From Rhodoferax sp. (GTDB taxonomy: Bacteria > Pseudomonadota > Gammaproteobacteria > Burkholderiales > Burkholderiaceae_C), in the NCBI GenBank assembly GCA_031291305.1, contig JARLJH010000049.1:1-60445 (forward strand): a DNA stretch of 60,445 bases. The letters are read 5' to 3'. Within the stretch, counting starts at the first letter, position 1; each line of letters starts with the position of its first letter. The translations under genes were made by a program, and so were the position numbers. Positions 17,732-43,259 of the stretch are shown here, piece by piece. Below the pieces are notes generated by a model that had not been told where the DNA came from, ran no database searches, and was given only the letters and a program-made list of their open reading frames with translations.

Positions 17732-17892
17732 GCTGGGTCGCCAGCGTCCTATCGCCGCCGCGCCCAATTGTTCGTTGCCAATTTGGTTAAAGACAGCACA
17801 GTAAGGTCTGAAACACCTTGTGCTGCACCGTAAAATTTAAGGCCGCCAGACTACAACCCTGGCTTGGATCAATAGTGGCGAAAGCCCTGCCC

Positions 17893-19764
17893 ATGTCCTT
17901 ACTATCGCGAGAAGCGCTACTCAAAGCCCACCACGGCATGCTGCTCGACGGACTGACCAATGTTTTCGGTCCGTTCAATCCAGAAATGTTGAACCATGTA
18001 TTGCCGCAGGTCCAGTGGATCGAACTCGGCGGTGGCGAGGTACTGTTTCATGAGGGCGACAACGATGAGAGCCTGTTTTTTGTCGTCAGTGGTCGGTTGC
18101 GTGCATCCTGCGTCAACGCAACCGGGCAGCGATCACTGCTCGGAGAGATCGCGCGTGGTGAAACTGTGGGAGAGATGGCCTTCTTCACAGGCGAGCCGCG
18201 CACAGCTACCGTAATGGCAGTCCGAGACAGTGTGCTCGCCCGTTTCTCGAACACGGTGTTCCATGAGTTGTTGCTGGCGTACCCTCTGGTGTCACTGAAC
18301 ATGACGCGTCAGGTGATTGACCGCTTCAAACGCGTCAACAGCGGGCGCCGTGTTCCAACCAAGCCGGTCATCATCGGGGTGATGGGCATCAGCCGGAACG
18401 TTGATGCTGCGGATTTCGCGTGGTCGCTGGCGCGGCATTTGCAAAGCTACGGAGGAACCATTGTTGTGACCTCGCGGCACATGGATGAGCAGCTCGGTGA
18501 GCCCGGTGCGGCGCAGGCTTCACGTGCCGACGTCGAACGTTCGCGCCGCGTCACCGTGCGGCTGGACAAGATTGAGGCGCTGCACGACTTTGTCGTGTTC
18601 GTGGCCGACGAGCTGTGTACCGAATGGACCCAGCGTTGCGTACGGCACTGCGACGAACTGCTACTGCTGGCCGACGCAGATGAGCCCCCGACCCTGCATC
18701 CGAACGAGGTCGACCTGCATGCATCGGACGAAGCGGGCGAAGCGCAGCGGACACTGGTGTTGCTGCATCCGGACAGCCGTCGTTCACCTACACAGACAGT
18801 ACGTTGGTTTGACGGGCGGCGTTTGTCTGGACATAACCATGTGCGCCGGGGCGTTACCCGTGACTGGCAGCGACTGGCGCGAGTGGTCTGCCGCAACACC
18901 GTAGGCCTGGTGCTATCGGGCGGAGGGGCACGCGGATTCGCGCATCTGGGCGTCATGCGTGCCATGGAGGAAGCCGGCATCGAGGTCGATTTGGTGGCAG
19001 GAACCAGCATTGGTGCAGTCATGGCTGCCTATGCGGGTATGGACATGCCGGCACCGGAAATGATCGCCGCAGCGCGTACGGCTTTTCGGGAGAATCCAAC
19101 TGGCGACTACAACGTGGTGCCTTTGATGTCGCTGATCAGCGGCAAGCGACTGCGGCGTGTCATCGACTCCGCAGTGGTGAACTCCCGTGGCCAGCACATC
19201 GACATTGAAGACTTGTGGAAGAGCTACTTCTGCATAACCAGCAACTACTCGACGGCGCGCGAAGCAGTGCACACCCGCGGACCGCTGGCCAAATCGATCC
19301 GCGCCAGCGTCTCCATTCCAGGCGCGCTGCCACCGGTCATGCTGGATGGTGAACTGCATACCGACGGCGGCACCTTCAACAATTTTCCCGCGGACGTGAT
19401 GAATCGCCGCGGCGCTGCGCGCATCATCGGTGTCGACCTGTTGCGGGACCGGGGTCTGCGTTATGAGCTCGACGAGGTGCCTGGTTCACTGGAGTTGATG
19501 CGCGACAAGTTGCGCGGTCGTGCCAGCAAGTACCACCTGCCTTCGCTGACCTCCCTGTTGCTTAACACCAGTCTGATGTGCAGCTATGCACGCCAGCAAG
19601 AGGCATTGTCGGTGGTGGACCTGCATTTCGCACCCATCGTTTATGGTTTCGGCATGCTGGAGTGGTCGAAGTTCGACAAGATCGTCGATGCAGGTTATTG
19701 CCATGGTGTCGAGCAGTTGGAGAAAATGGGTGACGCGGCCATTGCGCCTTATCGTTATCCATGA
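17893..19764 (+). CDS. Patatin-like phospholipase with N-terminal cyclic-nucleotide-binding domain
   Basis: A 623-residue NTE-like enzyme. Residues about 25-145 form a CNB/CRP fold (GGGEVLFHEGDNDESLFFVVSG, then GEMAFFTGEPRTATV). A middle alpha/beta segment (about 155-300) looks like a degenerate P-loop/ParA fold: GVMGISRNVDAADFAWSLA lacks a Walker Lys. The patatin domain follows, with oxyanion motif SGGGARG, nucleophile Ser372 in GTSIG and partner Asp491 in DGG. It would hydrolyse lysophospholipid or phospholipid at the membrane under cNMP control. ATG 17893 was chosen; a TTG at 17818 would add 25 atypical residues. Confidence 0.9.
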   Translation: MSLLSREALLKAHHGMLLDGLTNVFGPFNPEMLNHVLPQVQWIELGGGEVLFHEGDNDESLFFVVSGRLRASCVNATGQRSLLGEIARGETVGEMAFFTGEPRTATVMAVRDSVLARFSNTVFHELLLAYPLVSLNMTRQVIDRFKRVNSGRRVPTKPVIIGVMGISRNVDAADFAWSLARHLQSYGGTIVVTSRHMDEQLGEPGAAQASRADVERSRRVTVRLDKIEALHDFVVFVADELCTEWTQRCVRHCDELLLLADADEPPTLHPNEVDLHASDEAGEAQRTLVLLHPDSRRSPTQTVRWFDGRRLSGHNHVRRGVTRDWQRLARVVCRNTVGLVLSGGGARGFAHLGVMRAMEEAGIEVDLVAGTSIGAVMAAYAGMDMPAPEMIAAARTAFRENPTGDYNVVPLMSLISGKRLRRVIDSAVVNSRGQHIDIEDLWKSYFCITSNYSTAREAVHTRGPLAKSIRASVSIPGALPPVMLDGELHTDGGTFNNFPADVMNRRGAARIIGVDLLRDRGLRYELDEVPGSLELMRDKLRGRASKYHLPSLTSLLLNTSLMCSYARQQEALSVVDLHFAPIVYGFGMLEWSKFDKIVDAGYCHGVEQLEKMGDAAIAPYRYP

Positions 19765-19856: not shown

Positions 19857-21494
19857 TCAGGGAGTGAGCGACACATCGTCGAGTTGCTCCGGGTTCAAAA
19901 ATTGCTCTCCATAGCGGCGGAAAACCTCTTGTTGAACAAATACGTCAAACACATCGGGGTCAATGTGCCCGTTCTGCTTGAATTGCTGCAAGATTCGCAT
20001 GGCCTGTGATAACTTCATGCCCGGTTTGTAGGGTCGGTCTCGGGCGGTCAACGCTTCAAAAATGTCGGCAATGCCCATGATGCGTGCCTGCACAGACATC
20101 TGATCACGGGTAAGACCCTTGGGGTAACCCTTGCCGTCCATGCGCTCGTGGTGTCCACCGGCATATTCGGGCACGTTTTTCAGGTGCTGCGGCCAAGGCA
20201 GCTTTTCCAGCATCTTGATGGTAGCGACAATATGGTAGTTGATGGTGTCGCGCTCGGCTGAAGTCAGCGTGCCTCGGAGAATGCACAGGTTGTTAATTTC
20301 ATCGTCGGACAAGAAGTCACTCAATACACCGTCGACATTGCGCCAAACGTGGCGTCTGCCAATGTCATGCACCCGCTCTACATCGGCATCATGCATGCCT
20401 TCACCACCTGAATTGGCACGTCTGATGAACTCACGATCGGCATTCAAAACCTCCTGTGCTGCTTGGCATTGCTGCATCAGCGCGGATTCCGCAGCCATAT
20501 TGACCGGTGTTCGCAACTCCAACTGCTGGCGCAAAGCGACGATCTCTGCATCTCGCTTGAGCACTTCGAACCGGGTGTCAATCAGATGTATCCGATCAAA
20601 CAGTGTTTGAAGCTTGGTGGCCTTATCCACCACATGCACTGGGGTGGTGATCTTGCCGCAGTCGTGCAGCATCCCTGCGATCTTGAGTTCGTATCGATCT
20701 CTGTCGGTCATGGTGAATCCCGCCAACGGACCATTCTGTGTTTTTGCCACGGCCTCAGCCAGCATCATCGTCAACTCGGGCACCCGTTGACAGTGACCTC
20801 CGGTGTGAGGTGATTTTTCGTCAATGGCTAGGTTAATCAAGCCAATAAAACTCTCGAACAACACCTCCAACTGCGTCATCAACAAGTGGTTTGTAAGCGC
20901 AATAGCCGCCTGGGAGGCCAAGGACTCCGCCAAGTGTTGGTCGCTCTGGGAAAAGCCTATGACCTCGGTTGAATTCGCTTTGCGGGCATTGATGAGTTGC
21001 AACACACCAATCACGTCACCCTCATGATCTCGCATGGGAACGGTTAGAAAAGATTGAGAGCGGTATCCGCACCGTTGATCGAACACGCGAGTACCGGAGA
21101 AATCAAAATCAGTTTCGGTATAAGCATCTTCAATATTGACAGTCACGCCGTGAATGGCAGCATAAGCAGCCACGAGCGAGTCATTGGGAGTGCCATCTGA
21201 GGTACGCAGACTCAAGTCAGGAAAATCAATGGCCACCCCGGTATCCCCGCCCTCGAAGAGACCCAGAGAATCTGTACGCAAGATCGCAAAGCGCAAAGTA
21301 TTACCGTCATCAAGCATCCGGTAGAGCGTGCCGCCGTCAGCGTTGGTAATGGTCTTGGCAGCTAGCAATATCTGTTCAAGTAGGCGAGATGTGTCGCGTT
21401 CCTTGGAAAGGGACGCACCCACTTCATTCAATTGCTCCAGACGGCTGAGTAGGCTTTCGATCGTATTGCTTTCGCGCACAGTAGCAGTATTCAC
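19857..21494 (-). CDS. GAF-domain HD-GYP protein (cyclic-di-GMP phosphodiesterase type)
   Basis: A 545-residue cytoplasmic sensor-output protein. A GAF domain covers about residues 20-190, then an HD-GYP domain with HTGGHCQRVPEL, the HD pair in MLHDCGKI, and HHERMDGKGYPKGL containing GYP. RIMGIADIFEALTARDRPYK is the last conserved block. The metal-binding HD and GYP motifs are intact, so hydrolysis of c-di-GMP is likely. A roughly 90-residue insertion splits the HD core from HH. I chose GTG 21494 because AAGGGG lies 6 bases upstream. It is divergent from the CHAT operon with a 312-base gap. Confidence 0.88.
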   Translation of the reverse strand: MNTATVRESNTIESLLSRLEQLNEVGASLSKERDTSRLLEQILLAAKTITNADGGTLYRMLDDGNTLRFAILRTDSLGLFEGGDTGVAIDFPDLSLRTSDGTPNDSLVAAYAAIHGVTVNIEDAYTETDFDFSGTRVFDQRCGYRSQSFLTVPMRDHEGDVIGVLQLINARKANSTEVIGFSQSDQHLAESLASQAAIALTNHLLMTQLEVLFESFIGLINLAIDEKSPHTGGHCQRVPELTMMLAEAVAKTQNGPLAGFTMTDRDRYELKIAGMLHDCGKITTPVHVVDKATKLQTLFDRIHLIDTRFEVLKRDAEIVALRQQLELRTPVNMAAESALMQQCQAAQEVLNADREFIRRANSGGEGMHDADVERVHDIGRRHVWRNVDGVLSDFLSDDEINNLCILRGTLTSAERDTINYHIVATIKMLEKLPWPQHLKNVPEYAGGHHERMDGKGYPKGLTRDQMSVQARIMGIADIFEALTARDRPYKPGMKLSQAMRILQQFKQNGHIDPDVFDVFVQQEVFRRYGEQFLNPEQLDDVSLTP

Positions 21495-21806
21495 AGTAAA
21501 CCCCTTTTGATTCGCCCAAGACCATTGCCACACAAACTGCAGGAAAAACGTTCAGACAAGGCCTCATGTCTGTTGCCGCCAACCAGATTTTGCCCCTCTG
21601 GGGCCAATTGTGCCGATGATCAGTTGGTCAGTGCAATGCATTGGGAATCGGCTCCTCAATCTGACATCGGCACGGTATTGGCAAGTCACTTGACAATACC
21701 TGTATTGGTTGGCATGGAAATATGTAGCAGAAAGCTGGAGTATTCAGATTGACACTGCTTGTGGCGCAGAACTAAGATTCCAGGCATTGCATCAAGGGAG
21801 CTGCCC
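21495..21806. other. Divergent promoter region between the HD-GYP gene and the CHAT operon
   Basis: A 312-base gap with no convincing gene. It must contain promoters for both directions. AAGGGAG at 21794-21800 is the ribosome site of the CHAT gene. I see no strong inverted repeat or sigma-70 pair that I would call. Confidence 0.5.
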
Positions 21807-24800
21807 GTGAACCGATTACATGTACAGCACAGCCCCTGCGGTCACTGGCGGGCGTATTTGTTGCTGGTCTGGTTGGTGCTGGCTTTGCTGGCTCACCCGC
21901 TGCATGCCCAAAGTGAGCTGGACGATGTCGGCATGGCCAGCTTCGACAATGCAGACGCTGGCAGTAGCCCTATGGCGCCCGAGGAAGCCACCCGGCTGCT
22001 GGCCCAGCCCCTGCCTGACGCTCCCGATGCCCGCTACGCCGTGTTGCAACGGCAATACCGCGCCGCTGCACTGCTGGAAGATCGCCCTCGTTTGATTGTC
22101 ACCGCCCGCCAATTGGTAGACGCGGGCCGTGGCCGTCCCGGTGGCGAGAGCTGGATCACCACCTACCTCGGGGCTGAATTCGCATGGGGTAGTTCGGGCA
22201 AGGCGTTGGAAGCCAGCGAGGCCTTTGTGACCGATAGCAGCCTGTCTCTGGGCCTGCGCGCGATGGTGGCACTGCGCCAAACCTATTTCGCGGCCCAGGG
22301 GCATGACCGCGCCATCCTGGCCCGACTGTGGTCGCGCGCGGAAGACCTTTCCTCGGAGGCCCTGCGCCAAGGCGTGGCTTCGCCGAATTTGCAGATCAAT
22401 CAGTTGCAGGTGCGGTCCGAGATAGAACGCTGGCAGGGCAATACCAAGGCCTCGCTGGCCACGCTGCGCGAATCCATCGGTGTGGCGCGTAGCGACATAA
22501 AGGCTGTCAAGGCCCGTAACCGTGGCCCGCGCGACCCGGCGTTGCTGGATGCCTATGGTCGGTTGGACGGCACCATGGGCATGCTCACCTACGCCCTGGT
22601 GCGAGATGGTCGTCCCCAGGAAGCCATTCACGTGGCCCAGGCCAATCTGGCGCTATGGCACGCCGGTCAGATCAGCGATGGCCTGGGCGCGCGCTGGAAC
22701 TACCGTTTGGCCGCCAGTCTGAACGCGACCCAGCAGTTCGCGCCCGCGCTGGCAGCGGGCCAGCTGTCCGATGGCATGTTGCAACGCGCTGGCGTCAACC
22801 CGGCCAGTCACACCGCTTGGATGGCGCGACAAGAGATCGTGCGCGCACTGATTGGCCTGCGGCGCTGGCCCGAGGCTGATGTTGCCTACCGCAGTTTTCT
22901 GGTCAGCATGCCGCCCGATACACTGGCTCGCACCCGTGCTTCCGACTGGCGTTTGGAGGCCCTGCTGGCCGCCAAAAATGGACGGCTGGATGAAGCGCTG
23001 GAGCTGGCTGAGCGCTCGCTGCGCTACCGCAACCGACTATATGGCAGCAACCACCCTCAAACTCAGGAGGCCGCTGGTATACGAGGCTTTGTGCGCCTGC
23101 TGCGAGGGGACACACGCTCGGCCATGGGGGACTACGAGGCGCTGTTCGCTGCCACGTTAGACAACCCCGGTGGCTGGCTGGATCTGGACCTACGCGGCGT
23201 GCGCGGTTATGTACTGGGCATTGCTTTTGACGAATTCTTGCACTACGTGGCCGACAAGGCGTTGAAGGGTGAAGCCGTGGACGCCGCCATGAGCGACCGC
23301 GCCCTGCAGCTGGCCGACCGCAGCAGCCTGAGCGTGACCCAGCGCGCCATCACTGACAGCACGGCCCGTGTGCTGGCCAGCACGCCGGCCTTGCGCGCCC
23401 TTTTGGACTTGGAGCAGACGCAGCGCCAGGCCGTTTTCGCACTGGTCGCCACGCTCAATACCAGCCTAGGTGAGGAAGATGTCTTGCGCCACCAAGCCCA
23501 GTCGGCCGAATTCAAGGCCCTGTCGGAAGCCGAGCGTAAAGCCTTTGCCGAGCGCCGACAAGCTGTGCGTGACAGCATCAAGACCCAGCAGGCGGGTGTG
23601 AGCGCCGCGCGTGTTGTACTAACCAGTCAACGTGAAACCATTGCCAAGCAGTTTCCAGCCTATGCCGACCTGGTGACCCCCAGCACCCCCCGGCCAGACC
23701 AGCTGCGCCAACTGCTCAATCCTGGCGAGGCTCTGCTGGTGTTGTACCCCACCGACAACGCCACACTGATTTGGCTGCTGGGTGCGGACGGCCGCGAGAG
23801 CTTCAGCGCGGTCGCCTTGTCCCGTGCCGACCTGGCTCAGCGTGTCACACAGTTGCGCGGCCTGCTGGATCTGGGCAATGCGCCCGCCGGGCAGGAGCCG
23901 ACTCTGCCCAGCGCCCAGATGTATGCGCTGTACAAAGACCTGCTGGGTCCGATGGGGGTGGCTTTGCGAGACGTCCATTCGCTGTTAGTCGCCACAGACG
24001 GGCCTTTGGCCAGTCTGCCTTGGGCGGCCTTGGTGACCCAGCCGCCGCAGCCCAACCAACCACCCGCCTGGCTGGTGCGGCAGATGGCGGTGACGCAGCT
24101 CCCTGCGTCCTCAGCACTGCTGGCGCTGCGCCGGGTGGCGCAGCCCGCTGCGGCCGCGAAGGCATTGATGGGTTTTGGCGACCCGCTGTTCAATGCCCAG
24201 GCAGGCATTACCTCGCGCGTGAATACCGGCCTGCGGCCCGAAGCCGCGCGCTATGACGCGGAATGGGGTTTCCGTTACGCCGATATGCCGCCTCTGCCAG
24301 ACACCCGTGCGGAGCTGCTGGCCCTGGCTGCTGCGCTTGGCGCCAACCCGCAGAGCGACTTGCTGCTGGACTCTCAGGCAACCCGGCGCGCGGTGCTGGA
24401 CGCGAATTTGCTGGACCGACGCGTGGTGGCTTTCGCCACACACGGGCTGCTGCCGGGCGAGCTGCCGGGTATTTCCAAACCCTCGCTGGCCATGGCTGCT
24501 ACCAGTGATGAGCGCGAGTCGCCGCTGTTGGAGCTCGACGATGTGTTGGGTCTGCGGCTGAACGCCCAGTGGGTGCTGCTGTCGGCCTGCAATACGGCGG
24601 CGGGCGAGCAGGGTGGGGCCGCCATGTCTGGCCTGGTGCGGGGCTTCTTTTTTGCTGGCGCGCGCTCTGTGCTGGCCACGCATTGGGCTGTGGAGTCGGA
24701 ATCGGCCACGGCGCTGACCAGCGCCACCTTTGCCGCTCACGCCAAGGGTGCGGTGTCGCGCGGCGAAAGCCTGCGTCTTGCCCAGTTGGCCATGCTGGAT

Positions 24801-24878
24801 GGTACGCTGGGCGGTGGGCGCTGGAATCACCCTTTTTATTGGGCGCCGTATGCACTGTTTGGCGACCCGGTGCGATGA
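21807..24878 (+). CDS. Exported TPR-CHAT domain protein (caspase-like protease)
   Basis: A 1023-residue protein from GTG 21807, preceded by AGGGAG. Residues 1-34 are a signal peptide ending PLHA. A long helical region (about 60-600) has tetratricopeptide-like repeats, for example DEALELAERSLRYRNRLYGSNHPQTQEAAG, then a coiled stretch. The CHAT domain fills the C-terminal 340 residues with the caspase dyad His879 in FATHGLLPGE and Cys928 in LLSACNTAAGEQGG. CHAT domains are cysteine peptidases or scaffolds of regulated proteolysis. Export makes a periplasmic site likely. ATGA at its end overlaps an in-frame ATG of the FecR gene. Confidence 0.9.
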   Translation: MNRLHVQHSPCGHWRAYLLLVWLVLALLAHPLHAQSELDDVGMASFDNADAGSSPMAPEEATRLLAQPLPDAPDARYAVLQRQYRAAALLEDRPRLIVTARQLVDAGRGRPGGESWITTYLGAEFAWGSSGKALEASEAFVTDSSLSLGLRAMVALRQTYFAAQGHDRAILARLWSRAEDLSSEALRQGVASPNLQINQLQVRSEIERWQGNTKASLATLRESIGVARSDIKAVKARNRGPRDPALLDAYGRLDGTMGMLTYALVRDGRPQEAIHVAQANLALWHAGQISDGLGARWNYRLAASLNATQQFAPALAAGQLSDGMLQRAGVNPASHTAWMARQEIVRALIGLRRWPEADVAYRSFLVSMPPDTLARTRASDWRLEALLAAKNGRLDEALELAERSLRYRNRLYGSNHPQTQEAAGIRGFVRLLRGDTRSAMGDYEALFAATLDNPGGWLDLDLRGVRGYVLGIAFDEFLHYVADKALKGEAVDAAMSDRALQLADRSSLSVTQRAITDSTARVLASTPALRALLDLEQTQRQAVFALVATLNTSLGEEDVLRHQAQSAEFKALSEAERKAFAERRQAVRDSIKTQQAGVSAARVVLTSQRETIAKQFPAYADLVTPSTPRPDQLRQLLNPGEALLVLYPTDNATLIWLLGADGRESFSAVALSRADLAQRVTQLRGLLDLGNAPAGQEPTLPSAQMYALYKDLLGPMGVALRDVHSLLVATDGPLASLPWAALVTQPPQPNQPPAWLVRQMAVTQLPASSALLALRRVAQPAAAAKALMGFGDPLFNAQAGITSRVNTGLRPEAARYDAEWGFRYADMPPLPDTRAELLALAAALGANPQSDLLLDSQATRRAVLDANLLDRRVVAFATHGLLPGELPGISKPSLAMAATSDERESPLLELDDVLGLRLNAQWVLLSACNTAAGEQGGAAMSGLVRGFFFAGARSVLATHWAVESESATALTSATFAAHAKGAVSRGESLRLAQLAMLDGTLGGGRWNHPFYWAPYALFGDPVR

Positions 24879-24898
24879 TCCCCTTCATGAGGAAAGCC

Positions 24899-25777
24899 AT
24901 GATCCCCACATACTATTTTGTATTGACCCGCCATATGCGCCGGTTTTTGTTGTTGGCGCTATGCCTATTGGCGCTGGGGGCCCACGCGCAAGCGGTGGCG
25001 GTGGTGACGGATGTAAAAGGCGTTGTGGTTTTCACCCCTGAGCGTGGCGGTAAACCTGTGGTCTTGTTGTCTGAGCTGGCCAACGGCGCCGACATCCTGC
25101 TGGAAAAGGGCGCCACGCTCAGTTTTGTTTACCTTCAGTCGGGCACTGAATTCCAGCTGCGCGGGGTGGCGCACATTACGCTCGGCGCGACCGAGCCGCA
25201 GTCTGTTTCCGGAGCCAGCGCCATCTTGCGTTCCTCGGCGGTGGCGGCGGAAACGGCCCGGCTTCAGACCACCAATGGCCGGGTGGTGCTGGGCGGTATG
25301 GTGATGCGCGGACTGGGCATGGAGCGGCTCAAGCTACTGGAACCCACGGGCAAGGTGCTCAGCGCCCGCCCTAGCTTTTTCTGGACTCTGCCTGGCGGCG
25401 CGACGAGTGTGAAGTTCGCGTTGCGCGACGAGGGTAACGACAAGCTGCTGCTGTCCACCACCGTGCAGGGCAGCCAGCTGGTGTTGGATGACGGCCTGCA
25501 GCTGCAGCCTGGGGTGAACTACGTATGGACAGTTACGCTGGAGCAGCCGGGCGTCAACAGCCTGAGCCGCTCCTCGTATTTCTCGCTGGCCAGCCCGCAG
25601 GAACGCGAACGCATGGAGGCGTTGCGGCCCGGCCCTCAGTCACCGTTTTCCGACCGGCTGATCTATGCCTCGCTGCTGGAGCAGGGTCGGTTTTTGAGCG
25701 CTTCTCGCAAGCTCTGGCAGCAGCTGGCCGACGAACGGCCGGACCTGCCCGAGCTGCGTACCTTGGCCAACAAGTAG
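24899..25777 (+). CDS. Exported FecR-domain protein
   Basis: A 292-residue protein with a signal peptide ending at about residue 30 (GAHA). The FecR domain occupies about 35-150: VTDVKGVVVFTPERGG, ADILLEKGATLSFVYLQSGTEF, then a strand-rich RLQTTNGRVVLGG. The rest is beta-rich and ends in a short helical tail. No FecI-type sigma factor or TonB receptor is nearby, so a classical FecIR role is unlikely. GAGGA lies 5 bases before ATG 24899; ATG 24875, overlapping the CHAT stop, is a possible alternative. Co-transcribed between CHAT and cyclase genes. Confidence 0.85.
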   Translation: MIPTYYFVLTRHMRRFLLLALCLLALGAHAQAVAVVTDVKGVVVFTPERGGKPVVLLSELANGADILLEKGATLSFVYLQSGTEFQLRGVAHITLGATEPQSVSGASAILRSSAVAAETARLQTTNGRVVLGGMVMRGLGMERLKLLEPTGKVLSARPSFFWTLPGGATSVKFALRDEGNDKLLLSTTVQGSQLVLDDGLQLQPGVNYVWTVTLEQPGVNSLSRSSYFSLASPQERERMEALRPGPQSPFSDRLIYASLLEQGRFLSASRKLWQQLADERPDLPELRTLANK

Positions 25778-27556
25778 GTGCTGGTGATTCCTGCGCGCAT
25801 TGTCTGGGCGGGCTACGTCCTGGTGCTGGTACTGGCGGCTCTGCTGCTGTGCACGTCGCTGGCGAGCCCGTTGGAGCTGGGCTTGCTAGACGTACAGCAG
25901 CGGATGCAGTTGCGCTACGCGCCCCAACCCGTGCACAAAGATGTGGTCATCGTTGGCATCGACGAGGCCAGCCTGCAGCAATTCGCCGAACCTTTCGCGC
26001 TATGGCATGGCCACATAGGCACATTCTTGCGCGGTATGGCGCTGGCCAAGGCTTCGGTGGTCGGGCTGGACGTGGTGCTGCCCAGCCGATCGTTTGACAG
26101 CGTGCTGCCGGGCAGCGATGCACAGTTGCTGGGTGGCCTGGTAGCGGTACGCCATCAGGTGCCGGTGGTGTTGGGCGTGTCGGCGGATGCTGCGGGTCGG
26201 CCTCTGCCCATCCATGCACCGTTTGTGACGCTGGCGGGCGCGGGTAGCACCGGCTCGCTGCTGCTGACGGCGGACGCCGACCATGTGGTGCGCCGCTTCA
26301 ACGAACGCATGGGAGCGGACGGCCAGCAGATCCCCTCGCTGACAGGCCAGATGCTGCGCAAGATTCATCCGAGTGCCGTTCTTCAGCCTGGGCTAATTAA
26401 TTACGCTCTGGGCGGCTACCCGCGCTACATCCCTCTGCAGCAGGTGAATCAGTGGGTGGAGGTGGGCGACGTGGCTCAACTGGCCCAGACCTTCGCGGGT
26501 AAGCCAGTACTGTTGGGAAGCGTGCTGCCTTTTGAAGACCGGCAGGTCCAGCCGGTGAACCTGGCCGAATGGGAGCAGGGCAACAGCGGCAATGTGCCCG
26601 GCGTGCTGGTGCACGCGCAAATCCTGCGTTCCCTGCTGAATGGCGGTTTGCTGGTGCAGGCAGATGCACTGTGGGTCGTGGTGGTCGCCTTGGCCTGCAG
26701 TTTGCTATGGTTTTTGCAACTACGTGTGCAAGCAGTGGTTGCGCTAGTGGTGGTTTTGCCGGTCTTGCTGCTGGGGGCTTCCAGCTTATTGTTGCAGCAG
26801 CGCCTGTACCTGCCGGTGGCGGTGCCGCTGCTGGTTGGCCTGCTGGCCCTTGGCGGGCGCTGGTTGGTAACGGCGCTGAGCGAAATGGCCGAGCGCCGTC
26901 GCTTGCGTGCCGCCTTTGCCGGTTATGTCAGTCCGCCGGTGATGCAGGAAATTCTGGCCCACCGCCTGGGTGCCGAGTTGGGCGGCGAGCTGCACCATGT
27001 GTGCATGTTGTTTGCCGATATCCGCGGCTTCACCACACTCAGCGAAACTTTGGCGCCGCACGCCGTGATTACCCTGTTGAACCGCTATTTCGAGGAGGTA
27101 AACCAGGCCATTCATGACCAGGGCGGCACCATCAGCTGCTTCATGGGCGACGGTATCATGGCCATTTTTGGCGCGCCGCAGACTATGGACAAGCCCAGCA
27201 TTGCCGCATTTGCCGCAGCCCGCGCCATGCTAGAGGCGCTGCAGAGGCTAAACGTCAAGCTGCAGACCGAAGGCAGGGCGCCGCTGGCCATTGGCATTGG
27301 GCTGCACGTGGGAGAAGCCATCGTCGGCCACCTGGGCTCGCAGGCGCGGCACGACTACTCTGCAATCGGCGACGCCGTCAACGTGGCGTCGCGCATTGAG
27401 GGTCTGACCAAAGAATTGGGTTACCCACTGCTGTGCTCCCAAGCTGTGGTGGATGAGGTAGCCCAGGCCCCGCTGTTCACCCACCTCGGCCCCCAAGCCA
27501 TCAAAGGCCACACTCCGGTGCAGGTCTGGGGCTGGAAGCCGGGCATATATCGCTGA
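25778..27556 (+). CDS. CHASE2-domain class III nucleotide cyclase
   Basis: A 592-residue receptor cyclase. One N-terminal helix anchors a periplasmic CHASE2 domain (about 35-300, DVVIVGIDEASLQQF); three closely spaced helices (about 305-370) follow, then the cyclase. Metal ligands are D414 in FADIRGF and D458 in MGDGIM; N535 and R539 in AVNVASRIE are the catalytic pair. The usual purine-selecting Lys or Glu is C454, and its partner is S528, so ATP versus GTP is uncertain. GTG 25778 directly follows the FecR stop, so the two are co-transcribed. Confidence 0.92.
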   Translation: MLVIPARIVWAGYVLVLVLAALLLCTSLASPLELGLLDVQQRMQLRYAPQPVHKDVVIVGIDEASLQQFAEPFALWHGHIGTFLRGMALAKASVVGLDVVLPSRSFDSVLPGSDAQLLGGLVAVRHQVPVVLGVSADAAGRPLPIHAPFVTLAGAGSTGSLLLTADADHVVRRFNERMGADGQQIPSLTGQMLRKIHPSAVLQPGLINYALGGYPRYIPLQQVNQWVEVGDVAQLAQTFAGKPVLLGSVLPFEDRQVQPVNLAEWEQGNSGNVPGVLVHAQILRSLLNGGLLVQADALWVVVVALACSLLWFLQLRVQAVVALVVVLPVLLLGASSLLLQQRLYLPVAVPLLVGLLALGGRWLVTALSEMAERRRLRAAFAGYVSPPVMQEILAHRLGAELGGELHHVCMLFADIRGFTTLSETLAPHAVITLLNRYFEEVNQAIHDQGGTISCFMGDGIMAIFGAPQTMDKPSIAAFAAARAMLEALQRLNVKLQTEGRAPLAIGIGLHVGEAIVGHLGSQARHDYSAIGDAVNVASRIEGLTKELGYPLLCSQAVVDEVAQAPLFTHLGPQAIKGHTPVQVWGWKPGIYR

Positions 27557-34839: not shown

Positions 34840-35045
34840 AGATGATAATCAAATAAAAACAATGACTTATGTGAGATTTGTTGAAAATTACGGGTTGCTT
34901 TTGCACTAATTTTAATGGATTTGTAAAACGTAAAGATGTTTTTTCTCTGTTGTCTGGAAATAAATTGCTTTATTTTGCTAAGTTTTTAACAATTGCCAGT
35001 TGGCGATGAAATTTGTTAGCACCCTTACTCCGAAAGTCTCCAAGC
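34840..35045. other. AT-rich divergent intergenic region
   Basis: About 200 bases markedly richer in A and T than the surroundings, separating the AAA ATPase and the NACHT-WD40 gene. A possible promoter for the plus gene is TTGAAA near 34879 with a weak -10 about 17 bases on. The composition suggests acquired DNA. Confidence 0.5.
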
Positions 35046-38000
35046 ATGAGCACCGTACCCACCGTTAAAGCCAGCCCCGAAGCTGCCCGTGCTGCCTGGG
35101 CGCGTTTGACTCCCAAACAGCGCAAAAGCGTGGTGGGCAGTACCTTCGCCAGCATCATTGGCATGCTGGATGACAGCGGCACTGCGCCGCTTGGCCGAGT
35201 GCTTGACGCGTTGTTTGACGACCTGGATCACGTTGCCGCCCACACCGCGCTCAAAACCCAGTTCATCAACCGCCCCTTCGCCGCGCCCGGTGCAAAAGCC
35301 GACACACAACCCCCTTTGCTTAAGCTCTGCGCCAGCCGCGTCGCGCTCAAAGATACCGCCCAGCGTGAAGCAGCCTTTGCCCGCGCCCAAGTCTGGTTTG
35401 AAGTGCCCGCACTGCTTGATCCTGCAACTCTGGCCACTGAACCCAACGCCGATGTGGCGCAGCGCTTCACCGACACCCTGGCCACCGACCTGTCACAGAG
35501 TGAAGTCATTGCCAACGCGCATGCCCAATCTGCCGCACTGCGCCGCGCCGAGCTGGCTCAGTTTGCCAATGGCCCCAGCAAAGCCGCGTGCAACTGGGGC
35601 ACACACTCCATGCGCCACGGGGCTGAGGGCAGTGGATTTCAGGAAGGCACGTTTGCGCGTGACGCAGTGCTGGGCAGCGGCGATGGCCGTTCTTTGCCTG
35701 GTTCCGACAGTCAAGCCAAATCGGCAGAGCCGCCCAAGCCCAAAGATGTTGTGGCCTTGCCCACGCTGCTGTGCTGGGCGCAAAACACCGCCAACGATTC
35801 ACCCCGCCTTTACGCGTTGCTGGGCGACTCTGGCACCGGCAAAACCAGTCATGGCCAGCAATTTGTCCGCATTCTCAATGGCGAAATAACCCACCCAGAC
35901 TGGCCAGCCCAGCTTGCTGCCGAAGACCTGCCCAAGGCCTTGTTCATTGACCTTGCGGAACTTGCGGGGGTCGACAACCTGGCCCAACTTTCGCTGGAAG
36001 ACATGCTGGTGCTGGTGCTCAAACGGCGTGACGGCGTGCAAGTGCAAACCGTGGCCGATGTCGCTCCGCTGGTGGCCGATGCGTGCGCTGGCCGCCTGAT
36101 ATTTGTCTTCGATGGCCTGGACGAATTGCTCAAGAACGACTCCCTGGTGCTGCAAAAAGCCTTTGAGCAGTTTCTGCGCGTGGTCGCCCGCCGTCCCAAC
36201 ACACCGCCGGGTGCGCGCCCGCCTAAGGCCATCGTCAGCTGCCGCAGCCACTACTTTCGCGATATTGAGGCGCAGCACAGCTTTTTTACCGCCCGTGGCC
36301 GTGGCGCGGTCACCACGCACTACTACCGCTGCCTCACTCTGTTGCCCTGGGGGCATGAGCTGATTGAGGGCTATCTCACCCGGCGCGTCGGGGCCGAGCA
36401 AGCCGCGCAACTGATGGCGCTGATTCGCAGCACCTACAACCTGGAAGAACTCGCCAGCCGCCCGGTGCTGCTGTCGATGATGAGTGAAAACATCCAGTCT
36501 TTGCTCCAAAAACAAAGCGCCGGTCAGCCCATTCTGGCCGCCACCCTTTACAGTGAAACCGTGGCCAGCTGGATTGAGCGCGATCAAGGCAAACACCGCC
36601 TGAGCGCCGCGCAAAAACCGCTGCTGATGGGTGCACTTGCCGCGGCCTTGTGGAACGATGGTGCCGAGGCCTGGCCCGCAGATCGGCTCGATCAATGGCT
36701 GGTACGCACCGTGCACGACCTCTTTCCCGGTCACTATGACGCGCCCGCGCTGCAAGGCATTCAGGACGATTTGCGCACCGCCACTTTCATCGTTCGCCCG
36801 GATGCGCGGCAATTTAACTTTGCCCACCGCTCTTATGGCGAGTATTTTCTGGCTCGTTTCATGATCGACGGCCTGACCCAGACGCTTGACGGTTTCTGGA
36901 GCCCGGCACAACTGCGTGCTTACCTGCCGCAACGCGCCCTTAACCCCGAGTCCATGGTTTTCCTGTCGCAGTTATGGACCGCCGACCAAGCCCACCAGAG
37001 CGCCCAAACCCTGACCCGGCGCGCCCATCTGTTGTGCCGCCTGTTGCAAGGCGAGGGCAGTGCCTCCAATGCGGACATGGTCAATGAAGCTGCCCCGGCG
37101 TTGCACGCCGTGCTGTGGCAAATGCTGCGTGCCATCCCATGGCCTATCAAAGCAGATGCGACGGGCCGTGCTGGGTCTGGCAGCGCGGACGTGTTACCGA
37201 TCAACCTGCGGGGCCTGTCGTTTGTAGAAGAGCGCTGGGAAAACCTGAACCTTACCAAGGCCCCACCGCTGGATTTGCGCGGTGCCAACCTGCGCGGCTT
37301 GTACGCCCTGCGCTGCCAGTTTGGCCCGGTGAGATGTGATGCGCAAACCAACTTCTCTCAAGCGGTGTTTCGCCGTTGCGACACGCGGGAACTGGCGTGG
37401 AATGGCGCACAACGCGCAGGGCTGTTGGTGCGGGGCGTGGGGCCGGTGGCAGCGGAGCAGGCCACACCGCTGGTTGGACCTTGGATACATCCGTTCTCGT
37501 CAAGTTATCTCAACAGCGTAGCTTTTCATCCCAGCGGTGCGTTGCTGGCCAGCGCGGGTAATGATGGCATGGTGTACTTGTGGGACACAGTCAGTCAAAG
37601 AGCACTCGCGGTGCTCAGGAGCCAAGACGATGTGGTGACCAGCGTTGTCTTTAATCCCAATGGTGCGCAACTAGCCAGTGCTGGGGAAGATGGCACCGTG
37701 TGCTTGTGGGATGTGGCGGCTCAAAGCGAACTGGCGGTACTCAGGCAGCATGGCGAAGCGGTAAGAAGCCTTGCCTACAACGCTGACGGCACATTGCTGG
37801 CGAGTGGAGGTTTTGAGGGTGAGGTGTGTTTGTGGGATGTTGTCAGTCAACAGGAAATCGCTGCACTCAAAGGGCATGACAAGGGTGTGGATAGTGTGGC
37901 CTTCAACCCTGGCAGCACACTGTTGGCCAGCGCAGGTGGCGACGGCTTGGTGCGCCTGTGGGACGTGCTCAGCCATGAAGAATGTGCGGCATTGAACGGC

Positions 38001-39467
38001 AAGGAGGTGCTCAGCCTTGTATTCGACCTCAGCGGTAGGTTGCTGGTTGGCGCACTTGCTGATGGTTCGGTGAGCCAGTGGGACGTGGTCAGTCATCGAG
38101 AACTCGCAAAACTCAAGGGGCATCGCGATGCGATTAAATGCTGCACCTTCAACACCAGCGGCACGCAACTGGCAAGTGTGAGCAAGGATGGACAAGTGCT
38201 TTTGTGGGATGTGTTCAAGCAAAAAGAACTTGTGGCATTTCAAGGGCATAGGAAGTGGGTAAGTAGTATTGCCTTTCATCCCGGTGGCACGCAATTGGCC
38301 AGCGCTGCTTATGACAGCACGGTGGAGGTGTGGGACATTGCCAGCCAAAGAGAATGCGCGATCCTCAAAGAGCGTGGAGAGGGACTGCTTTGCATCGCCT
38401 TCAGCCCTGATGGAATGCAACTGGCCATTGCTGGGGGCGGTGGCACAGTGCACTTTTGGGATGTACTGAGTCCAAAAGAACTTGCCGTACTCAAGGGACA
38501 TGCCGATGTGGTGAAAGGCATCGCCTTCGATCCCTGCGGGAAATTGTTGGCTAGCGCCGGTAATGACGGGGTGGTGCGTCTGTGGGACATGAGCCGCAAA
38601 ACAGAAATCGCGCAACTCAATGGACACAGTGGATGGGTCAATACGGTCTCATTCAATCCCGATGGCACGCTGCTGGCGAGCGCGGATAGCGAAGGTGTGG
38701 TACGCCTCTGGGATGTGGCGAATCAAAGAGAACTAGCGGTGTTTGAGGGTCACTACTTACACGTTAGCTGTGTCGCCTTCAATTCCAGCGGCACACTGCT
38801 TGCCAGTGCGGGGGATGATGGCATCGTATGCCTGTGGGATGTGGAACATCAAACAGAACTCGCAGTATTTGAGGCGCAGGGTGAGACAGTTCTCACCGTC
38901 GCCTTTAACCCCGGCGGCGCCTTGTTGGCAAGTGCGGGAGATGATGGGATGGTGCGCTTGTGGGATGTGGCTGCGCGAAGTGAGCATGTTGCTCTCCAAG
39001 GAGACAAATATGTCAGTGAGGTTGCATTCAGCCCCGATGGCAGTTTATTGGCCAGTGCAGATGAAGATGGTACCGTGCGCTTGTGGAATGTGGCTCACCA
39101 AAGTTTGCTTGCGGTGTTTAAGGGGCATGATGGCGCCGTGAATAGTATCGCTTTCCAACCCAACGGCACACAACTCGCCAGCGCAGGTGCCGATGGCACA
39201 GTGCGCCTGTGGAATCTGGAACAACTGTTCAGGCAACTGACCGCCAGCCAACCAAGCGACAAGGCTGAGTCGGGTGAACCCGCTATCTATCACTATCACG
39301 CCGCCCCTTATCGTCTGATCGTGCCGCACCCGCTGCCCCCGTTTGCCCCCTCTTGGGCCGATTTTGATGCTGAGGGCCGGTTGCTCGACTGGAGTGAATC
39401 GGCCATCGACCATTGGTTGTTTGTTCAGCGCGATGGTCGCTCTGAGCCGATTGAGGCTGTGCTGTGA
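35046..39467 (+). CDS. NACHT-WD40 STAND NTPase
   Basis: A 1473-residue signal-transduction ATPase. Residues 1-240 are an unrecognised, mostly helical N-terminal region. The NACHT module has Walker A GDSGTGKT (260-267), Walker B FVFDGLDEL with D356, SCRSHYF and the late FAHRSYGEYFLARF. A short pentapeptide-like stretch (DLRGANLRGLYAL) leads to 14 WD40 repeats (about 815-1400), enough for two seven-blade propellers; blade 4 is shortened. An 80-residue tail follows. In such proteins the repeats sense a trigger and the NTPase oligomerises. ATG 35046 was chosen. No effector domain is recognised. Confidence 0.9.
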   Translation: MSTVPTVKASPEAARAAWARLTPKQRKSVVGSTFASIIGMLDDSGTAPLGRVLDALFDDLDHVAAHTALKTQFINRPFAAPGAKADTQPPLLKLCASRVALKDTAQREAAFARAQVWFEVPALLDPATLATEPNADVAQRFTDTLATDLSQSEVIANAHAQSAALRRAELAQFANGPSKAACNWGTHSMRHGAEGSGFQEGTFARDAVLGSGDGRSLPGSDSQAKSAEPPKPKDVVALPTLLCWAQNTANDSPRLYALLGDSGTGKTSHGQQFVRILNGEITHPDWPAQLAAEDLPKALFIDLAELAGVDNLAQLSLEDMLVLVLKRRDGVQVQTVADVAPLVADACAGRLIFVFDGLDELLKNDSLVLQKAFEQFLRVVARRPNTPPGARPPKAIVSCRSHYFRDIEAQHSFFTARGRGAVTTHYYRCLTLLPWGHELIEGYLTRRVGAEQAAQLMALIRSTYNLEELASRPVLLSMMSENIQSLLQKQSAGQPILAATLYSETVASWIERDQGKHRLSAAQKPLLMGALAAALWNDGAEAWPADRLDQWLVRTVHDLFPGHYDAPALQGIQDDLRTATFIVRPDARQFNFAHRSYGEYFLARFMIDGLTQTLDGFWSPAQLRAYLPQRALNPESMVFLSQLWTADQAHQSAQTLTRRAHLLCRLLQGEGSASNADMVNEAAPALHAVLWQMLRAIPWPIKADATGRAGSGSADVLPINLRGLSFVEERWENLNLTKAPPLDLRGANLRGLYALRCQFGPVRCDAQTNFSQAVFRRCDTRELAWNGAQRAGLLVRGVGPVAAEQATPLVGPWIHPFSSSYLNSVAFHPSGALLASAGNDGMVYLWDTVSQRALAVLRSQDDVVTSVVFNPNGAQLASAGEDGTVCLWDVAAQSELAVLRQHGEAVRSLAYNADGTLLASGGFEGEVCLWDVVSQQEIAALKGHDKGVDSVAFNPGSTLLASAGGDGLVRLWDVLSHEECAALNGKEVLSLVFDLSGRLLVGALADGSVSQWDVVSHRELAKLKGHRDAIKCCTFNTSGTQLASVSKDGQVLLWDVFKQKELVAFQGHRKWVSSIAFHPGGTQLASAAYDSTVEVWDIASQRECAILKERGEGLLCIAFSPDGMQLAIAGGGGTVHFWDVLSPKELAVLKGHADVVKGIAFDPCGKLLASAGNDGVVRLWDMSRKTEIAQLNGHSGWVNTVSFNPDGTLLASADSEGVVRLWDVANQRELAVFEGHYLHVSCVAFNSSGTLLASAGDDGIVCLWDVEHQTELAVFEAQGETVLTVAFNPGGALLASAGDDGMVRLWDVAARSEHVALQGDKYVSEVAFSPDGSLLASADEDGTVRLWNVAHQSLLAVFKGHDGAVNSIAFQPNGTQLASAGADGTVRLWNLEQLFRQLTASQPSDKAESGEPAIYHYHAAPYRLIVPHPLPPFAPSWADFDAEGRLLDWSESAIDHWLFVQRDGRSEPIEAVL

Positions 39468-39645: not shown

Positions 39646-39697
39646 TCATTTTTGATAGCTGCTTGCGCAGTATGGATAAGCGCTAGAGGCTAATTTT
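39646..39697 (-). repeat. Palindromic repeat copy 4 (family R1), upstream of recC
   Basis: On minus it reads TTAGCCTCTAGCGC, then GCGCAAGCAGCTATC and AAAAATG. On plus, its CTAGAGGC provides AGAGG (39685-39689), 6 bases before the TTG used as recC start. Confidence 0.85.
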
Positions 39698-42600: not shown

Positions 42601-43259
42601 CCGCCTGGCTGCAGCGCTTTCCTGTGGCGCTGGATGCGCTGCCGGTGGAACTGACGCTGTCAGAGGCGGGTGAGGTTCAAACCCTGACCGGCACCCTCAG
42701 CGGCCTCTGGGCGCAGAACGCCGCCACCGGCTCGCCGTGTCTGCAGCTCGCCGAGCGCACCGGCGCCGTGTTGCAGGGTGACAAGTCCCGCTTGTCAGCG
42801 CGCCTGCATGTGCTGGTGGGGCTGTGGCTGCGGCATCTGGCGGCCTGCGCTAGCGGGCTCAACATCACCAGCGTGCAGTTGGGTGTGGACGGCCAAGTGG
42901 TGATCGCGCCGATGAGCGCTGACGCGGCACGGGGCATTCTGCACAAGCTGGCGCAAACCTATGCATCCGCCTGGGCGCAGCCGCTGCCGCTGGCCTGCAA
43001 AACCGCCTGGGCCTACCTGCTGGCCGAGCGGCAAAACCAGGCGCTGGCGGACGCTGGCAAACCCACCAAAGATCCGCACGACGCCGCCCGCGAGGCGTTT
43101 GAAGGCGGCCAGCGCGGTGGTGAGCGGGCCGAATCCGCCTACCTGCAACGCGCCTTTGCCAGCTATGACGCGCTGGCGGATGCGTTGCCAGACTGGGCGC
43201 AGGCACTCTATGGCGACTTGCTGGCGCATGTTGAGGTGAGCAGCGGGGTGGCCGCATGA
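39696..43259 (+). CDS. recC: RecBCD enzyme subunit RecC
   Basis: A 1187-residue inactivated helicase-nuclease homologue that splits the duplex and recognises Chi in the RecBCD machine. The N-terminus GFMVLHGNRLEDLRDLL, PLEPEVILLQSNGMKHWL and later LLGMNDGAYPRV and RREDDRYLFLEALLSARDKLYISW are RecC blocks. Start is TTG 39696, whose AGAGG is supplied by a repeat; an ATG at 39735 would cut into the conserved first strand. Residues 832-849 (IRPLAQVNTGQAAMDSAA) come from R1 copy 5. The stop TGA lies in the ATGAT that is duplicated around the MITE. Confidence 0.95.
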   Translation: MLTNQETTLPTGFMVLHGNRLEDLRDLLVSYLAEHPLGPLEPEVILLQSNGMKHWLELALADDGALGICAATRMELPSSYLWQMYRAVLGLDAVPEHMPFDKAALLWRLVRLLPAMCDANPVYAPLKRYLSGDNPARKLYQLAEQLADVLDGYQSYRADWLADWADGRDQLRGPLGAPQPLPPEHAWQAQLWRDIRADVGPALMDASRASVHERFMASLAAAVGSECGSGLPLPGLPRRLIVFGISSLSTQAVQALAALGQVCQVMLLVQNPCQYFWGDVVEGHAALRAQLRRRQLGKPGVASGASAALPAASAQPLLASWGKQGRDYLHLLDGFDEPERYRAHWSRVDVFVDPAVADDEQPSQLAQLQSAIFNLAPPPEQASAQPDDGSLIFVTAHSAQRELEVLHDRLLAWLDADPALQPRDVMVMVPDMPAFAPHIHAAFGRFAPGQPRYIPFSVADTTPRQSPLVQALEQLLNLPHARLTLADWLSLFEVAAVRQRFGLDEAALRQVQAWLTAAGVRWGLDAAHRLAWGLPDGAQGLEQNTWAFGLRRLLLGYALGSGAVNPEAAAPGVEGLTDGALWCDTLAQPALSGLDAPLAAGLLDWIDAIEQTLPTLQPDQPPAQWGRTLQALVERFFAPADDADERAIERLLTPLEAWLQSCEDAALDTPLPLEVVREHWLANISEAGLQQRFFGGGVQFGTLMPMRSIPFKVICLLGMNDGAYPRVQAARDFDLMASSWRAGDRSRREDDRYLFLEALLSARDKLYISWQGHSAADNSARPPSVLVAQLLDHVNACWSLARTPQAQPLQPFSDAYFEADSGFQTYGADWEKIRPLAQVNTGQAAMDSAAIIPTVGAAMDAEPLTASSPQQALTLADLQRLLRQPVEVFFRQRLQVEFDSLEELDQEDEPFALNPLQQHSAGAALLQAGGSPTALRQLQSSGSLPLAGFGTRLADELMAKAQTVLQSRAAWLQRFPVALDALPVELTLSEAGEVQTLTGTLSGLWAQNAATGSPCLQLAERTGAVLQGDKSRLSARLHVLVGLWLRHLAACASGLNITSVQLGVDGQVVIAPMSADAARGILHKLAQTYASAWAQPLPLACKTAWAYLLAERQNQALADAGKPTKDPHDAAREAFEGGQRGGERAESAYLQRAFASYDALADALPDWAQALYGDLLAHVEVSSGVAA
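42189..42243 (+). repeat. Palindromic repeat copy 5 (family R1), in frame inside recC
   Basis: GGCCTCTAGCCC, a 10-base spacer, GGGCAAGCAGCTATGGAT. It is translated as PLAQVNTGQAA and lies in a linker between the helicase-like and C-terminal parts of RecC. Confidence 0.9.

What the first reader, a model, noticed from the sequence alone, without database searches (positions are those of the whole stretch)
21807..27556. CHAT-FecR-CHASE2 cyclase operon: candidate periplasmic proteolysis-to-cyclic-nucleotide signalling system
Three genes on one strand, overlapping or abutting, encode an exported TPR-CHAT protein with an intact His879/Cys928 dyad, an exported FecR-domain protein, and a CHASE2 receptor with a cytoplasmic cyclase. 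Seen: signal peptides on the first two, gene coupling, motifs. Known: CHAT is a caspase-like family, CHASE2 an extracytoplasmic sensor, FecR a periplasmic signal-transfer domain. Inferred: the CHAT protein cleaves or scaffolds FecR or CHASE2 so that cyclase output reports a periplasmic event. From memory, CHAT and CHASE2 also occur fused in some cyanobacteria, which would support the link.
Basis: partly seen in the sequence, partly recalled or inferred. Interest (0 to 1): 0.8.

Follow-up and report, generated by a model that had tools for sequence, protein, structure and literature searches.

The report
Exported caspase-like protease–CHASE2 receptor module
Three coupled genes encode a probably exported caspase-like protein, a small probably exported partner and a membrane receptor with an intracellular cyclase; close relatives of the caspase-like protein sit in the same kind of operon with a different receptor output, which points to a real but untested envelope signalling module.

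Summary
The three-gene operon is real: TPR-CHAT (21807-24878), a small gene (24875-25777) and a CHASE2-class III cyclase (25778-27556), tightly coupled. One label is wrong: the middle protein shows no FecR domain by Pfam or profile comparison. Its predicted fold (β-domain, Ig/Fn3, helices) matches magnetobacterial MtxA best, by a small margin, and mtxA too is reported in front of a CHASE2-cyclase gene. The link itself holds up. In 59 related genomes with CHAT, CHAT and CHASE2 lie within 2.5 kb on one strand 9 times (8 besides the window), against 0.13 expected. Nine genomes carry an orthologous CHAT (52-67% identity), a FecR gene and a CHASE2-GGDEF-EAL receptor: one CHAT clade, two distinct receptor cassettes, cyclase or c-di-GMP type. 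More distant CHATs lie beside CHASE2-cyclases in other gene orders, also in Alphaproteobacteria. Against: 10 of 19 close CHAT orthologs have no CHASE2 nearby, and FecR/MtxA-CHASE2 pairs occur without CHAT, so CHAT is an add-on. My searches of open papers found no report of CHAT with CHASE2 or FecR. Most likely CHAT acts in the periplasm on the pair; proteolysis is inferred. The cyclase has Cys at the base-specifying position, so its product cannot be called cAMP or cGMP.

The parts
21796..21800 (+). GGGAG, likely ribosome-binding site of the CHAT gene
   Evidence: read from sequence
21807..24878 (+). TPR-CHAT protein, 1023 aa, N-terminal signal-like segment
22959..23126 (+). best-matching TPR stretch (TPR_12, residues 385-440)
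23925..24866 (+). CHAT domain (PF12770)
24441..24443 (+). codon of catalytic His879
   Evidence: invariant in 6 of 6 orthologs
24588..24590 (+). codon of catalytic Cys928; the only Cys after the signal-like segment
24875..25777 (+). MtxA-like small protein with signal-like segment (300 aa from ATG 24875; a second ATG at 24899 is preceded by AGGAAA); ATG overlaps the CHAT stop
24992..25234 (+). predicted N-terminal beta domain of the MtxA-like protein (model residues 41-121)
   Evidence: AF2 model
25307..25309 (+). codon of the invariant Arg in the low-confidence linker before the Ig/Fn3 domain
   Evidence: 12 of 12 in alignment A2; low pLDDT at 135-149
25319..25591 (+). predicted Ig/Fn3-like domain (model residues 150-240)
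25595..25771 (+). four predicted helices, TPR-like by my reading (model residues 242-300)
25778..27556 (+). CHASE2 receptor with class III nucleotide cyclase, 592 aa
25826..26698 (+). CHASE2 domain
26993..27412 (+). class III cyclase domain; metal Asp414/Asp458, Asn535 and Arg539 present; base-specifying Lys/Glu replaced by Cys

Best explanation
An envelope signalling module. The core is a small exported protein (MtxA-like here, FecR in sister operons) that works with a CHASE2 receptor in the inner membrane. An exported TPR-CHAT protein has been added upstream; its TPR part recognises something in the periplasm and its His-Cys CHAT domain acts on the pair, most likely by limited proteolysis of the small partner (for example in the linker between its N-terminal domain and its Ig-TPR body) or of the receptor's outer domain. 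This changes CHASE2 and so the cytoplasmic enzyme: a class III cyclase of unknown product here, a GGDEF-EAL c-di-GMP type protein in the sister operons. Shown: gene coupling, domains, presence of the catalytic residues, recurrent neighbourhood, different receptor cassettes behind orthologous CHATs. Inferred: export, periplasmic site of action, proteolysis, direction of signalling.
For: Translational coupling. Dyad and its surroundings nearly invariant. 9 same-strand CHAT-CHASE2 pairs within 2.5 kb (the window among them) in 59 genomes picked for having CHAT, against 0.13 expected (uniform positions, no correction for kinship). Among 80 named CHAT loci 19 have CHASE2, and 15 of the 32 with at least 5 kb on both sides have it within 5 kb. 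Nine genomes have CHAT-FecR-CHASE2-GGDEF-EAL. The window CHAT is 53-67% identical to those of the four examined pairwise, while their CHASE2 sensors give no significant match to the window's (best E 0.12); the window's sensor is 44% identical to those of L118 and L126, whose CHATs are only 31-38% identical. Other gene orders (L089, L102, L111, L118, L125, L126, L129, L137) in Beta- and Alphaproteobacteria. CHAT of the window, L039 and L045 (3 of 6) holds only the catalytic Cys after the signal-like segment. PMC9729208 states that CHAT protease substrates are commonly encoded near the protease gene and shows a TPR-CHAT protease cutting a neighbour's product, Csx30 (passages).
Against: No measured activity of any member. 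Ten of 19 close CHAT orthologs (52-78% identity) have no CHASE2 in the fetched DNA; only L062, with 225 bp left after CHAT, is uninformative. Two of these genomes (G315, G316; L066, L067) have no CHASE2 match at all. In the tree the window's nearest CHATs beyond L059 have no adjacent CHASE2. FecR/MtxA-CHASE2 pairs exist without an adjacent CHAT (L050, L051, L146, L150). The invariant linker Arg is also present in L050 and, by eye, in L146, which have no adjacent CHAT. Three of 6 CHATs keep a second Cys. Export was judged by eye. Deletion of mtxA in M. gryphiswaldense gave no visible phenotype under standard conditions (PMC4439547, section 16).
Confidence: 0.45

Rival explanations
1. CHAT is a non-proteolytic binding partner: its TPR part relays a periplasmic ligand to the FecR/MtxA-CHASE2 pair by contact alone.
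For: Helical TPR region predicted with fair confidence; the MtxA-like partner carries predicted Ig and helical interaction domains.
Against: The dyad lies in the longest blocks of invariant residues of the protein, 6 of 6 sequences, as expected of an enzyme.
Confidence: 0.2
2. CHAT is a parallel effector or the regulated target: the receptor senses the envelope independently, and the CHAT protease acts on other exported substrates in the same response.
For: Pairs without adjacent CHAT and CHATs without CHASE2 both exist; some CHAT loci instead have caspase (C14) genes and a CHASE2 protein without a recognised output domain.
Against: Repeated close linkage in several gene orders and the same CHAT-partner-receptor order in 11 genomes favour direct work on the pair.
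Confidence: 0.2
3. Co-location without functional link: the neighbourhood reflects gene family abundance or shared transfer.
For: CHAT in 107 of 299 and CHASE2 in 230 of 299 family genomes, so both are common; many CHAT orthologs lack CHASE2 nearby.
Against: 0.13 pairs expected against 9 seen (simple estimate, genomes not independent); different receptor cassettes behind orthologous CHATs; divergent and convergent arrangements elsewhere.
Confidence: 0.08
4. An anti-phage system: a Pycsar-like cyclase with a CHAT effector.
For: PADLOC PycC models match the cyclase domain (best 5e-28); the base-specifying residue is unusual; CHAT proteases serve in type III CRISPR immunity (PMC9729208, PMC11417357 passages).
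Against: The best solved relative is Cya2, 2w01, 112 bits, and PycC models are themselves class III cyclases; no Pycsar effector gene seen next to it; CHAT and partner appear exported.
Confidence: 0.05

Closest known systems
MtxA and its CHASE2-adenylate cyclase gene in magnetotactic bacteria (PMC4439547)
   Same: Signal peptide, beta-rich N-terminal part, Ig-like then TPR domain, gene followed by a CHASE2-cyclase gene; top Foldseek hit of the middle protein (4z29, E 5.5e-4).
   Different: The lead over plain Fn3 proteins is small (next E 6.8e-4); no sequence match to MtxA found by HMMER; 'CHAT' does not occur in the main text; MtxA's N-terminal part is unsolved.
BiofilmReg operon of Burkholderiales: LysM-FecR protein with a CHASE2 histidine kinase (PMC5192318)
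   Same: Exported FecR protein next to a CHASE2 receptor; cytoplasmic domains variable.
   Different: Histidine kinase and response regulator instead of cyclase or GGDEF-EAL; 'CHAT' does not occur in the main text.
Cya2, CHASE2-linked guanylate cyclase of Synechocystis (2w01; PMC5995499)
   Same: CHASE2 receptor with class III cyclase; closest solved cyclase domain (112 bits).
   Different: Cya2 has Glu488 at the base-specifying position, the window protein Cys; neighbours of Cya2 were not examined.
Craspase TPR-CHAT and its neighbour-encoded substrate Csx30 (PMC9729208)
   Same: TPR-CHAT architecture, His-Cys dyad, partner encoded next door.
   Different: Activated by a CRISPR RNA complex; here apparently exported, no CRISPR parts seen in the operon, no match to a solved chain at E 0.01 with the profile of six orthologs.

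Membership tests
CHAT (PF12770) | domain match over the curated cut-off | tested here: met
   153.7 bits against 24
CHAT (PF12770) | His-Cys catalytic dyad | tested here: met
   H879, C928 invariant in 6 of 6
CHAT (PF12770) | caspase-like fold | tested here: inconclusive
   AF2 model of that part mostly below pLDDT 50
CHAT (PF12770) | protease activity | not testable with these tools
   needs an assay
FecR (PF04773), window middle gene | FecR domain | tested here: not met
   no Pfam match at E<=1; hhalign 13%, E 0.0021 without signal peptides; with them 75%, E 2.5e-5 over 65 columns
FecR (PF04773), middle gene of sister operons | FecR domain | tested here: met
   Pfam 2.5e-15 (L042) and 8.5e-15 (L044); the other seven operons by a local HMM built from these two
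MtxA | signal peptide, beta N-part, Ig-like, TPR in this order | tested here: inconclusive
   order agrees in the predicted model, pLDDT 81; top Foldseek hit 4z29, probability 1.00, TMt 0.51, TMq 0.33, but Fn3 proteins follow closely; the helices are TPR-like only by my reading
MtxA | detectable sequence similarity | tested here: not met
   no 4z29 hit with profile A2 or with the L126 relative; hence called MtxA-like, not filed as MtxA
MtxA | gene followed by CHASE2-cyclase gene | tested here: met
   PMC4439547 introduction
CHASE2 receptor (PF05226) | domain match over the curated cut-off | tested here: met
   89.1 bits against 26.3
class III nucleotide cyclase | two metal Asp, transition-state Asn and Arg | tested here: met
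   D414, D458, N535, R539 invariant in 14 of 14 (roles recalled)
adenylate cyclase (class III) | base-specifying Lys | tested here: not met
   Cys in window and L059; Lys in 7 of 14 (L089, L102, L111, L124, L125, L129, L137)
guanylate cyclase (Cya2 type) | base-specifying Glu (Cya2 Glu488) | tested here: not met
   Cys; L050 has Glu
Pycsar | cyclase plus adjacent TIR or transmembrane effector (recalled) | tested here: not met
   neighbours are the MtxA-like gene and, downstream on the other strand, a fatty acid hydroxylase; PycC models match only the cyclase domain
BiofilmReg | CHASE2 histidine kinase with response regulator gene | tested here: not met
   output is a cyclase

The most novel reading that the evidence does not exclude
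CHASE2 receptors, whose input has been unknown, are driven in these bacteria by regulated periplasmic proteolysis: an exported separase/caspase-like CHAT protease cuts the FecR- or MtxA-type partner (in the MtxA type possibly after an Arg that is invariant in 12 of 12 aligned relatives and lies in a poorly ordered linker), and the cut sets a second messenger that evolution has swapped between a cyclic nucleotide and c-di-GMP.
Probability: 0.22. Interest if true: 0.85.

Novelty: new variant of a known kind. Interest (0 to 1): 0.6.

Why it matters
What CHASE2 domains sense is not known (PMC5192318 says so), MtxA has a part structure but no known function, and the CHAT proteases described in the passages I read act inside the cell on CRISPR-linked partners or gasdermin. 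If this module works as proposed, it joins the three: a caspase-like protease in the envelope as the input of a widespread receptor family. Orthologous CHATs with two different outputs make the question testable, because the same kind of protease can be read out through c-di-GMP or through a cyclic nucleotide.

Tried and rejected
FecR identity of the middle gene: rejected. CHAT fold prediction: alignment too shallow, CHAT part unusable, so no fold search was made with it. PDB sequence search with the CHAT profile: nothing at E 0.01. Sequence link to MtxA: none found, so the link rests on predicted fold, domain order and gene neighbour; the Foldseek lead of 4z29 over Fn3 proteins is slight (E 5.5e-4 against 6.8e-4), and in the VIA-align second look Fn3 or Ig domains fill the 50 rows shown and 4z29 is not among them. 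Genome-contig scan with the middle protein: no confirmed relative. Middle protein in 150 family genomes: 4 with a match, the own one included. MtxA-type profile in 240 genomes of the class of G305: only G305 itself. Conserved wider neighbourhood: the cNMP-binding patatin and the HD-GYP type gene upstream gave no blastp hit at E 1e-4 among the called genes of L039-L058, so they are not counted as parts. NCBIfam: no match for the CHAT protein or the middle gene. PADLOC: only a weak BovA match for CHAT (0.0014). Cyanobacterial CHAT-CHASE2 fusions, GGDEF/EAL active-site motifs and membrane topology were not tested. Literature: 'CHASE2' with 'CHAT domain' 0 papers, 'CHAT domain' with 'FecR' 0, 'CHASE2' with 'FecR' 3, 'CHASE2' with 'adenylate cyclase' and 'operon' 4, 'CHAT domain' with 'caspase' and 'cyclase' 2, 'HetF' with 'CHAT' and 'PatU3' 0; the library holds only openly licensed papers. 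Of PMC8406250 (HetF) I saw passages only and used none.
Full report
OBSERVATION. The window carries three + strand genes in tight order: CHAT 21807-24878, a small gene 24875-25777 and a CHASE2-cyclase 25778-27556. The CHAT stop overlaps an ATG of the next gene, whose stop is directly followed by the GTG of the third. Pfam confirms CHAT, TPR, CHASE2 and class III cyclase domains. The CHAT dyad, H879 and C928 counted from GTG 21807, is present. The own genome has one CHAT gene and two CHASE2 genes; the other CHASE2 protein is also a cyclase (723 aa), with no FecR/MtxA-type gene seen beside it by my local HMMs.

THE MIDDLE GENE. No FecR domain is found by Pfam at E<=1; a DUF928 match is below cut-off. 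Against a profile of FecR proteins of sister operons, hhalign gives 75% over 65 columns with signal peptides included, but 13%, E 0.0021, once they are removed. An AlphaFold2 model from 12 sequences (mean pLDDT 81) shows a signal-like helix, a beta domain (41-121), a poorly predicted linker (135-149), an Ig/Fn3-like domain and four helices. The top Foldseek match in the PDB is the C-terminal part of MtxA, 4z29, E 5.5e-4, probability 1.00, TMt 0.51, TMq 0.33 over 161 columns; plain Fn3 proteins follow closely (6.8e-4) and fill the VIA-align list, so the score alone does not single out MtxA. What adds weight is the shared order: MtxA has a signal peptide, a beta-rich N-terminal region, an Ig-like domain (142-226) and TPR (227-313), and its gene is followed by a CHASE2-adenylate cyclase gene in magnetotactic bacteria (PMC4439547: outline, passages and sections 15-16 seen). 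Sequence searches do not link the two. I call the window protein MtxA-like. One Arg, just before the Ig-like domain and inside the poorly predicted linker, is invariant in 12 of 12 aligned relatives and, by eye, present in a 13th, L146. MtxA gave crystals only in the presence of trypsin, and the solved part starts at residue 142, before its Ig-like domain. That the CHAT protein cuts the corresponding linker is my hypothesis; two relatives with that Arg (L050, L146) have no adjacent CHAT.

CO-OCCURRENCE. CHAT is found in 107 of 299 genomes of the family and CHASE2 in 230 of 299. In 59 genomes picked by hand from the 107, a recount of all listed matches gives 9 same-strand CHAT-CHASE2 pairs within 2.5 kb: G000 (the window), G039, G155, G237, G111, G174, G084, G030, G279. 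A uniform-position estimate gives 0.13; it ignores kinship of the genomes. A scan of named genomes with six CHAT orthologs gave 136 relatives, of which the tool kept the best 80. Of these 80 loci 19 have a CHASE2 gene; of 32 loci with at least 5 kb on both sides, 15 have one within 5 kb.

TWO RECEPTOR CASSETTES BEHIND ONE CHAT. Nine genomes have CHAT, a FecR gene and a CHASE2-GGDEF-EAL receptor in one direction: G174 (L043), L068, L069, L070, L072, L073, L074, L075, L076. FecR is confirmed by Pfam in two and by a local HMM in the rest; CHASE2, GGDEF and EAL by Pfam in four, where a PAS match is also seen, and by local HMM in the rest. The window and a Rhodoferax MAG (L039/L059) have CHAT, the MtxA-like gene and a CHASE2-cyclase. 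The window CHAT is 67, 62, 57 and 53% identical to the CHATs of L043, L042, L045 and L044, but its sensor region gives no significant BLAST match to their receptors (best E 0.12); it is 44% identical to the sensors of L118 and L126, whose CHATs are only 31 and 38% identical. In the CHAT tree the window and L059 form a pair (100/100) inside a seven-row group (96/89) whose other five members (L060, L061, L062, L063, L071) have no adjacent CHASE2; L062 is on a 3.2 kb contig. The partners of CHAT have therefore changed, by exchange or by separate acquisition. Further loci place CHAT beside CHASE2-cyclases in other orders: L089, L102, L111 on one strand, L118 and L137 divergent, L125, L126, L129 convergent, among them Alphaproteobacteria by record title. 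A third type has CHAT, a CHASE2 protein without recognised output domain and caspase (C14) genes: L041 with OmpA (Pfam), L040 and L046 with OmpA (local HMM), L047 and L077 without it.

LIMITS OF THE LINK. The FecR/MtxA-CHASE2 pair also stands without an adjacent CHAT (L050, L051, L146, L150), and FecR-CHASE2 kinase operons are in print (PMC5192318, outline and passages). Ten of 19 close CHAT orthologs (52-78% identity) show no CHASE2 in the DNA held: L060-L067, L071, L084. L062 ends 225 bp after CHAT; L066 and L067 end after about 650-680 bp, but their genomes have no CHASE2 match at all; L060 has other genes in its 2.6 kb (MazE, MmeI-like) and L065 an ABC transporter gene next. Seven of nine of these genomes examined have CHASE2 genes elsewhere (the genome of L062 was not examined), so action in trans is possible but unshown.

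CYCLASE. The residues known for metal binding and catalysis (roles recalled) are invariant in 14 of 14 aligned CHASE2-cyclases. The closest solved domain is Cya2 (2w01, 112 bits), a CHASE2-linked guanylate cyclase in which residue 488 sets the base and E488K gives adenylate cyclase activity (PMC5995499, passages). The window enzyme has Cys there, and Ser at the second position (second position recalled). Its product is open. The genome has 11 cNMP-binding matches, one of them 3.5 kb upstream of the operon, so receivers may exist.

MECHANISM. PMC9729208 (passages) states that CHAT substrates are commonly encoded nearby and shows a TPR-CHAT protease cutting a neighbour's product. By that rule the partner or the CHASE2 ectodomain is the likely target here. 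The near-invariant active-site region argues for an enzyme; three of six aligned CHATs keep only the catalytic Cys after the signal-like segment and three keep one more, which at most hints at a periplasmic site. None of this is measured.

VERDICT. A real, recurrent operon; the FecR label is wrong for the window but right for its sister operons. It combines known parts in a way my searches of open papers did not find described.

Noticed in passing
window 17818-19764 +: Protein with cNMP-binding domain, NTE P-loop and patatin phospholipase domain, the best cNMP-binding match of the genome and a possible cyclic nucleotide receiver two genes upstream of the operon.
   Followed up: partly
window 19857-21533 -: GAF-HD_5 (HD-GYP type) protein divergent from the operon; a c-di-GMP type enzyme next to a module whose sister operons have a c-di-GMP type output. 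No blastp hit among the called genes of L039-L058.
   Followed up: partly
L041 5529-16581; similar L040, L046, L047, L077: Clusters of CHAT, a CHASE2 protein without recognised output domain and caspase (C14) genes (three in L041), with OmpA in L040, L041 and L046: two caspase-like families together in what looks like an envelope system.
   Followed up: partly
L061 6759-14710 and L063 7920-12743: Close CHAT orthologs with a caspase gene just upstream and a PAS hybrid histidine kinase downstream (L061), or a CHASE-GGDEF protein downstream (L063): perhaps further outputs.
   Followed up: no
window 35013-39467 +: 1484 aa protein: WD40 repeats in the second half, no Pfam match at 1e-5 in the first 779 residues and no PADLOC match at 0.01 there.
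   Followed up: partly
window 39696-49172 +: RecC and RecD by Pfam with a 1265 aa frame between them, presumably RecB (not scanned).
   Followed up: no
L050 9071-10921; L118 2610-4385; L126 10215-12338: CHASE2-cyclases of the window's clade whose base-specifying residue is Glu (L050) or Ser (L118, L126) instead of Cys: this clade varies at the position that sets substrate.
   Followed up: no
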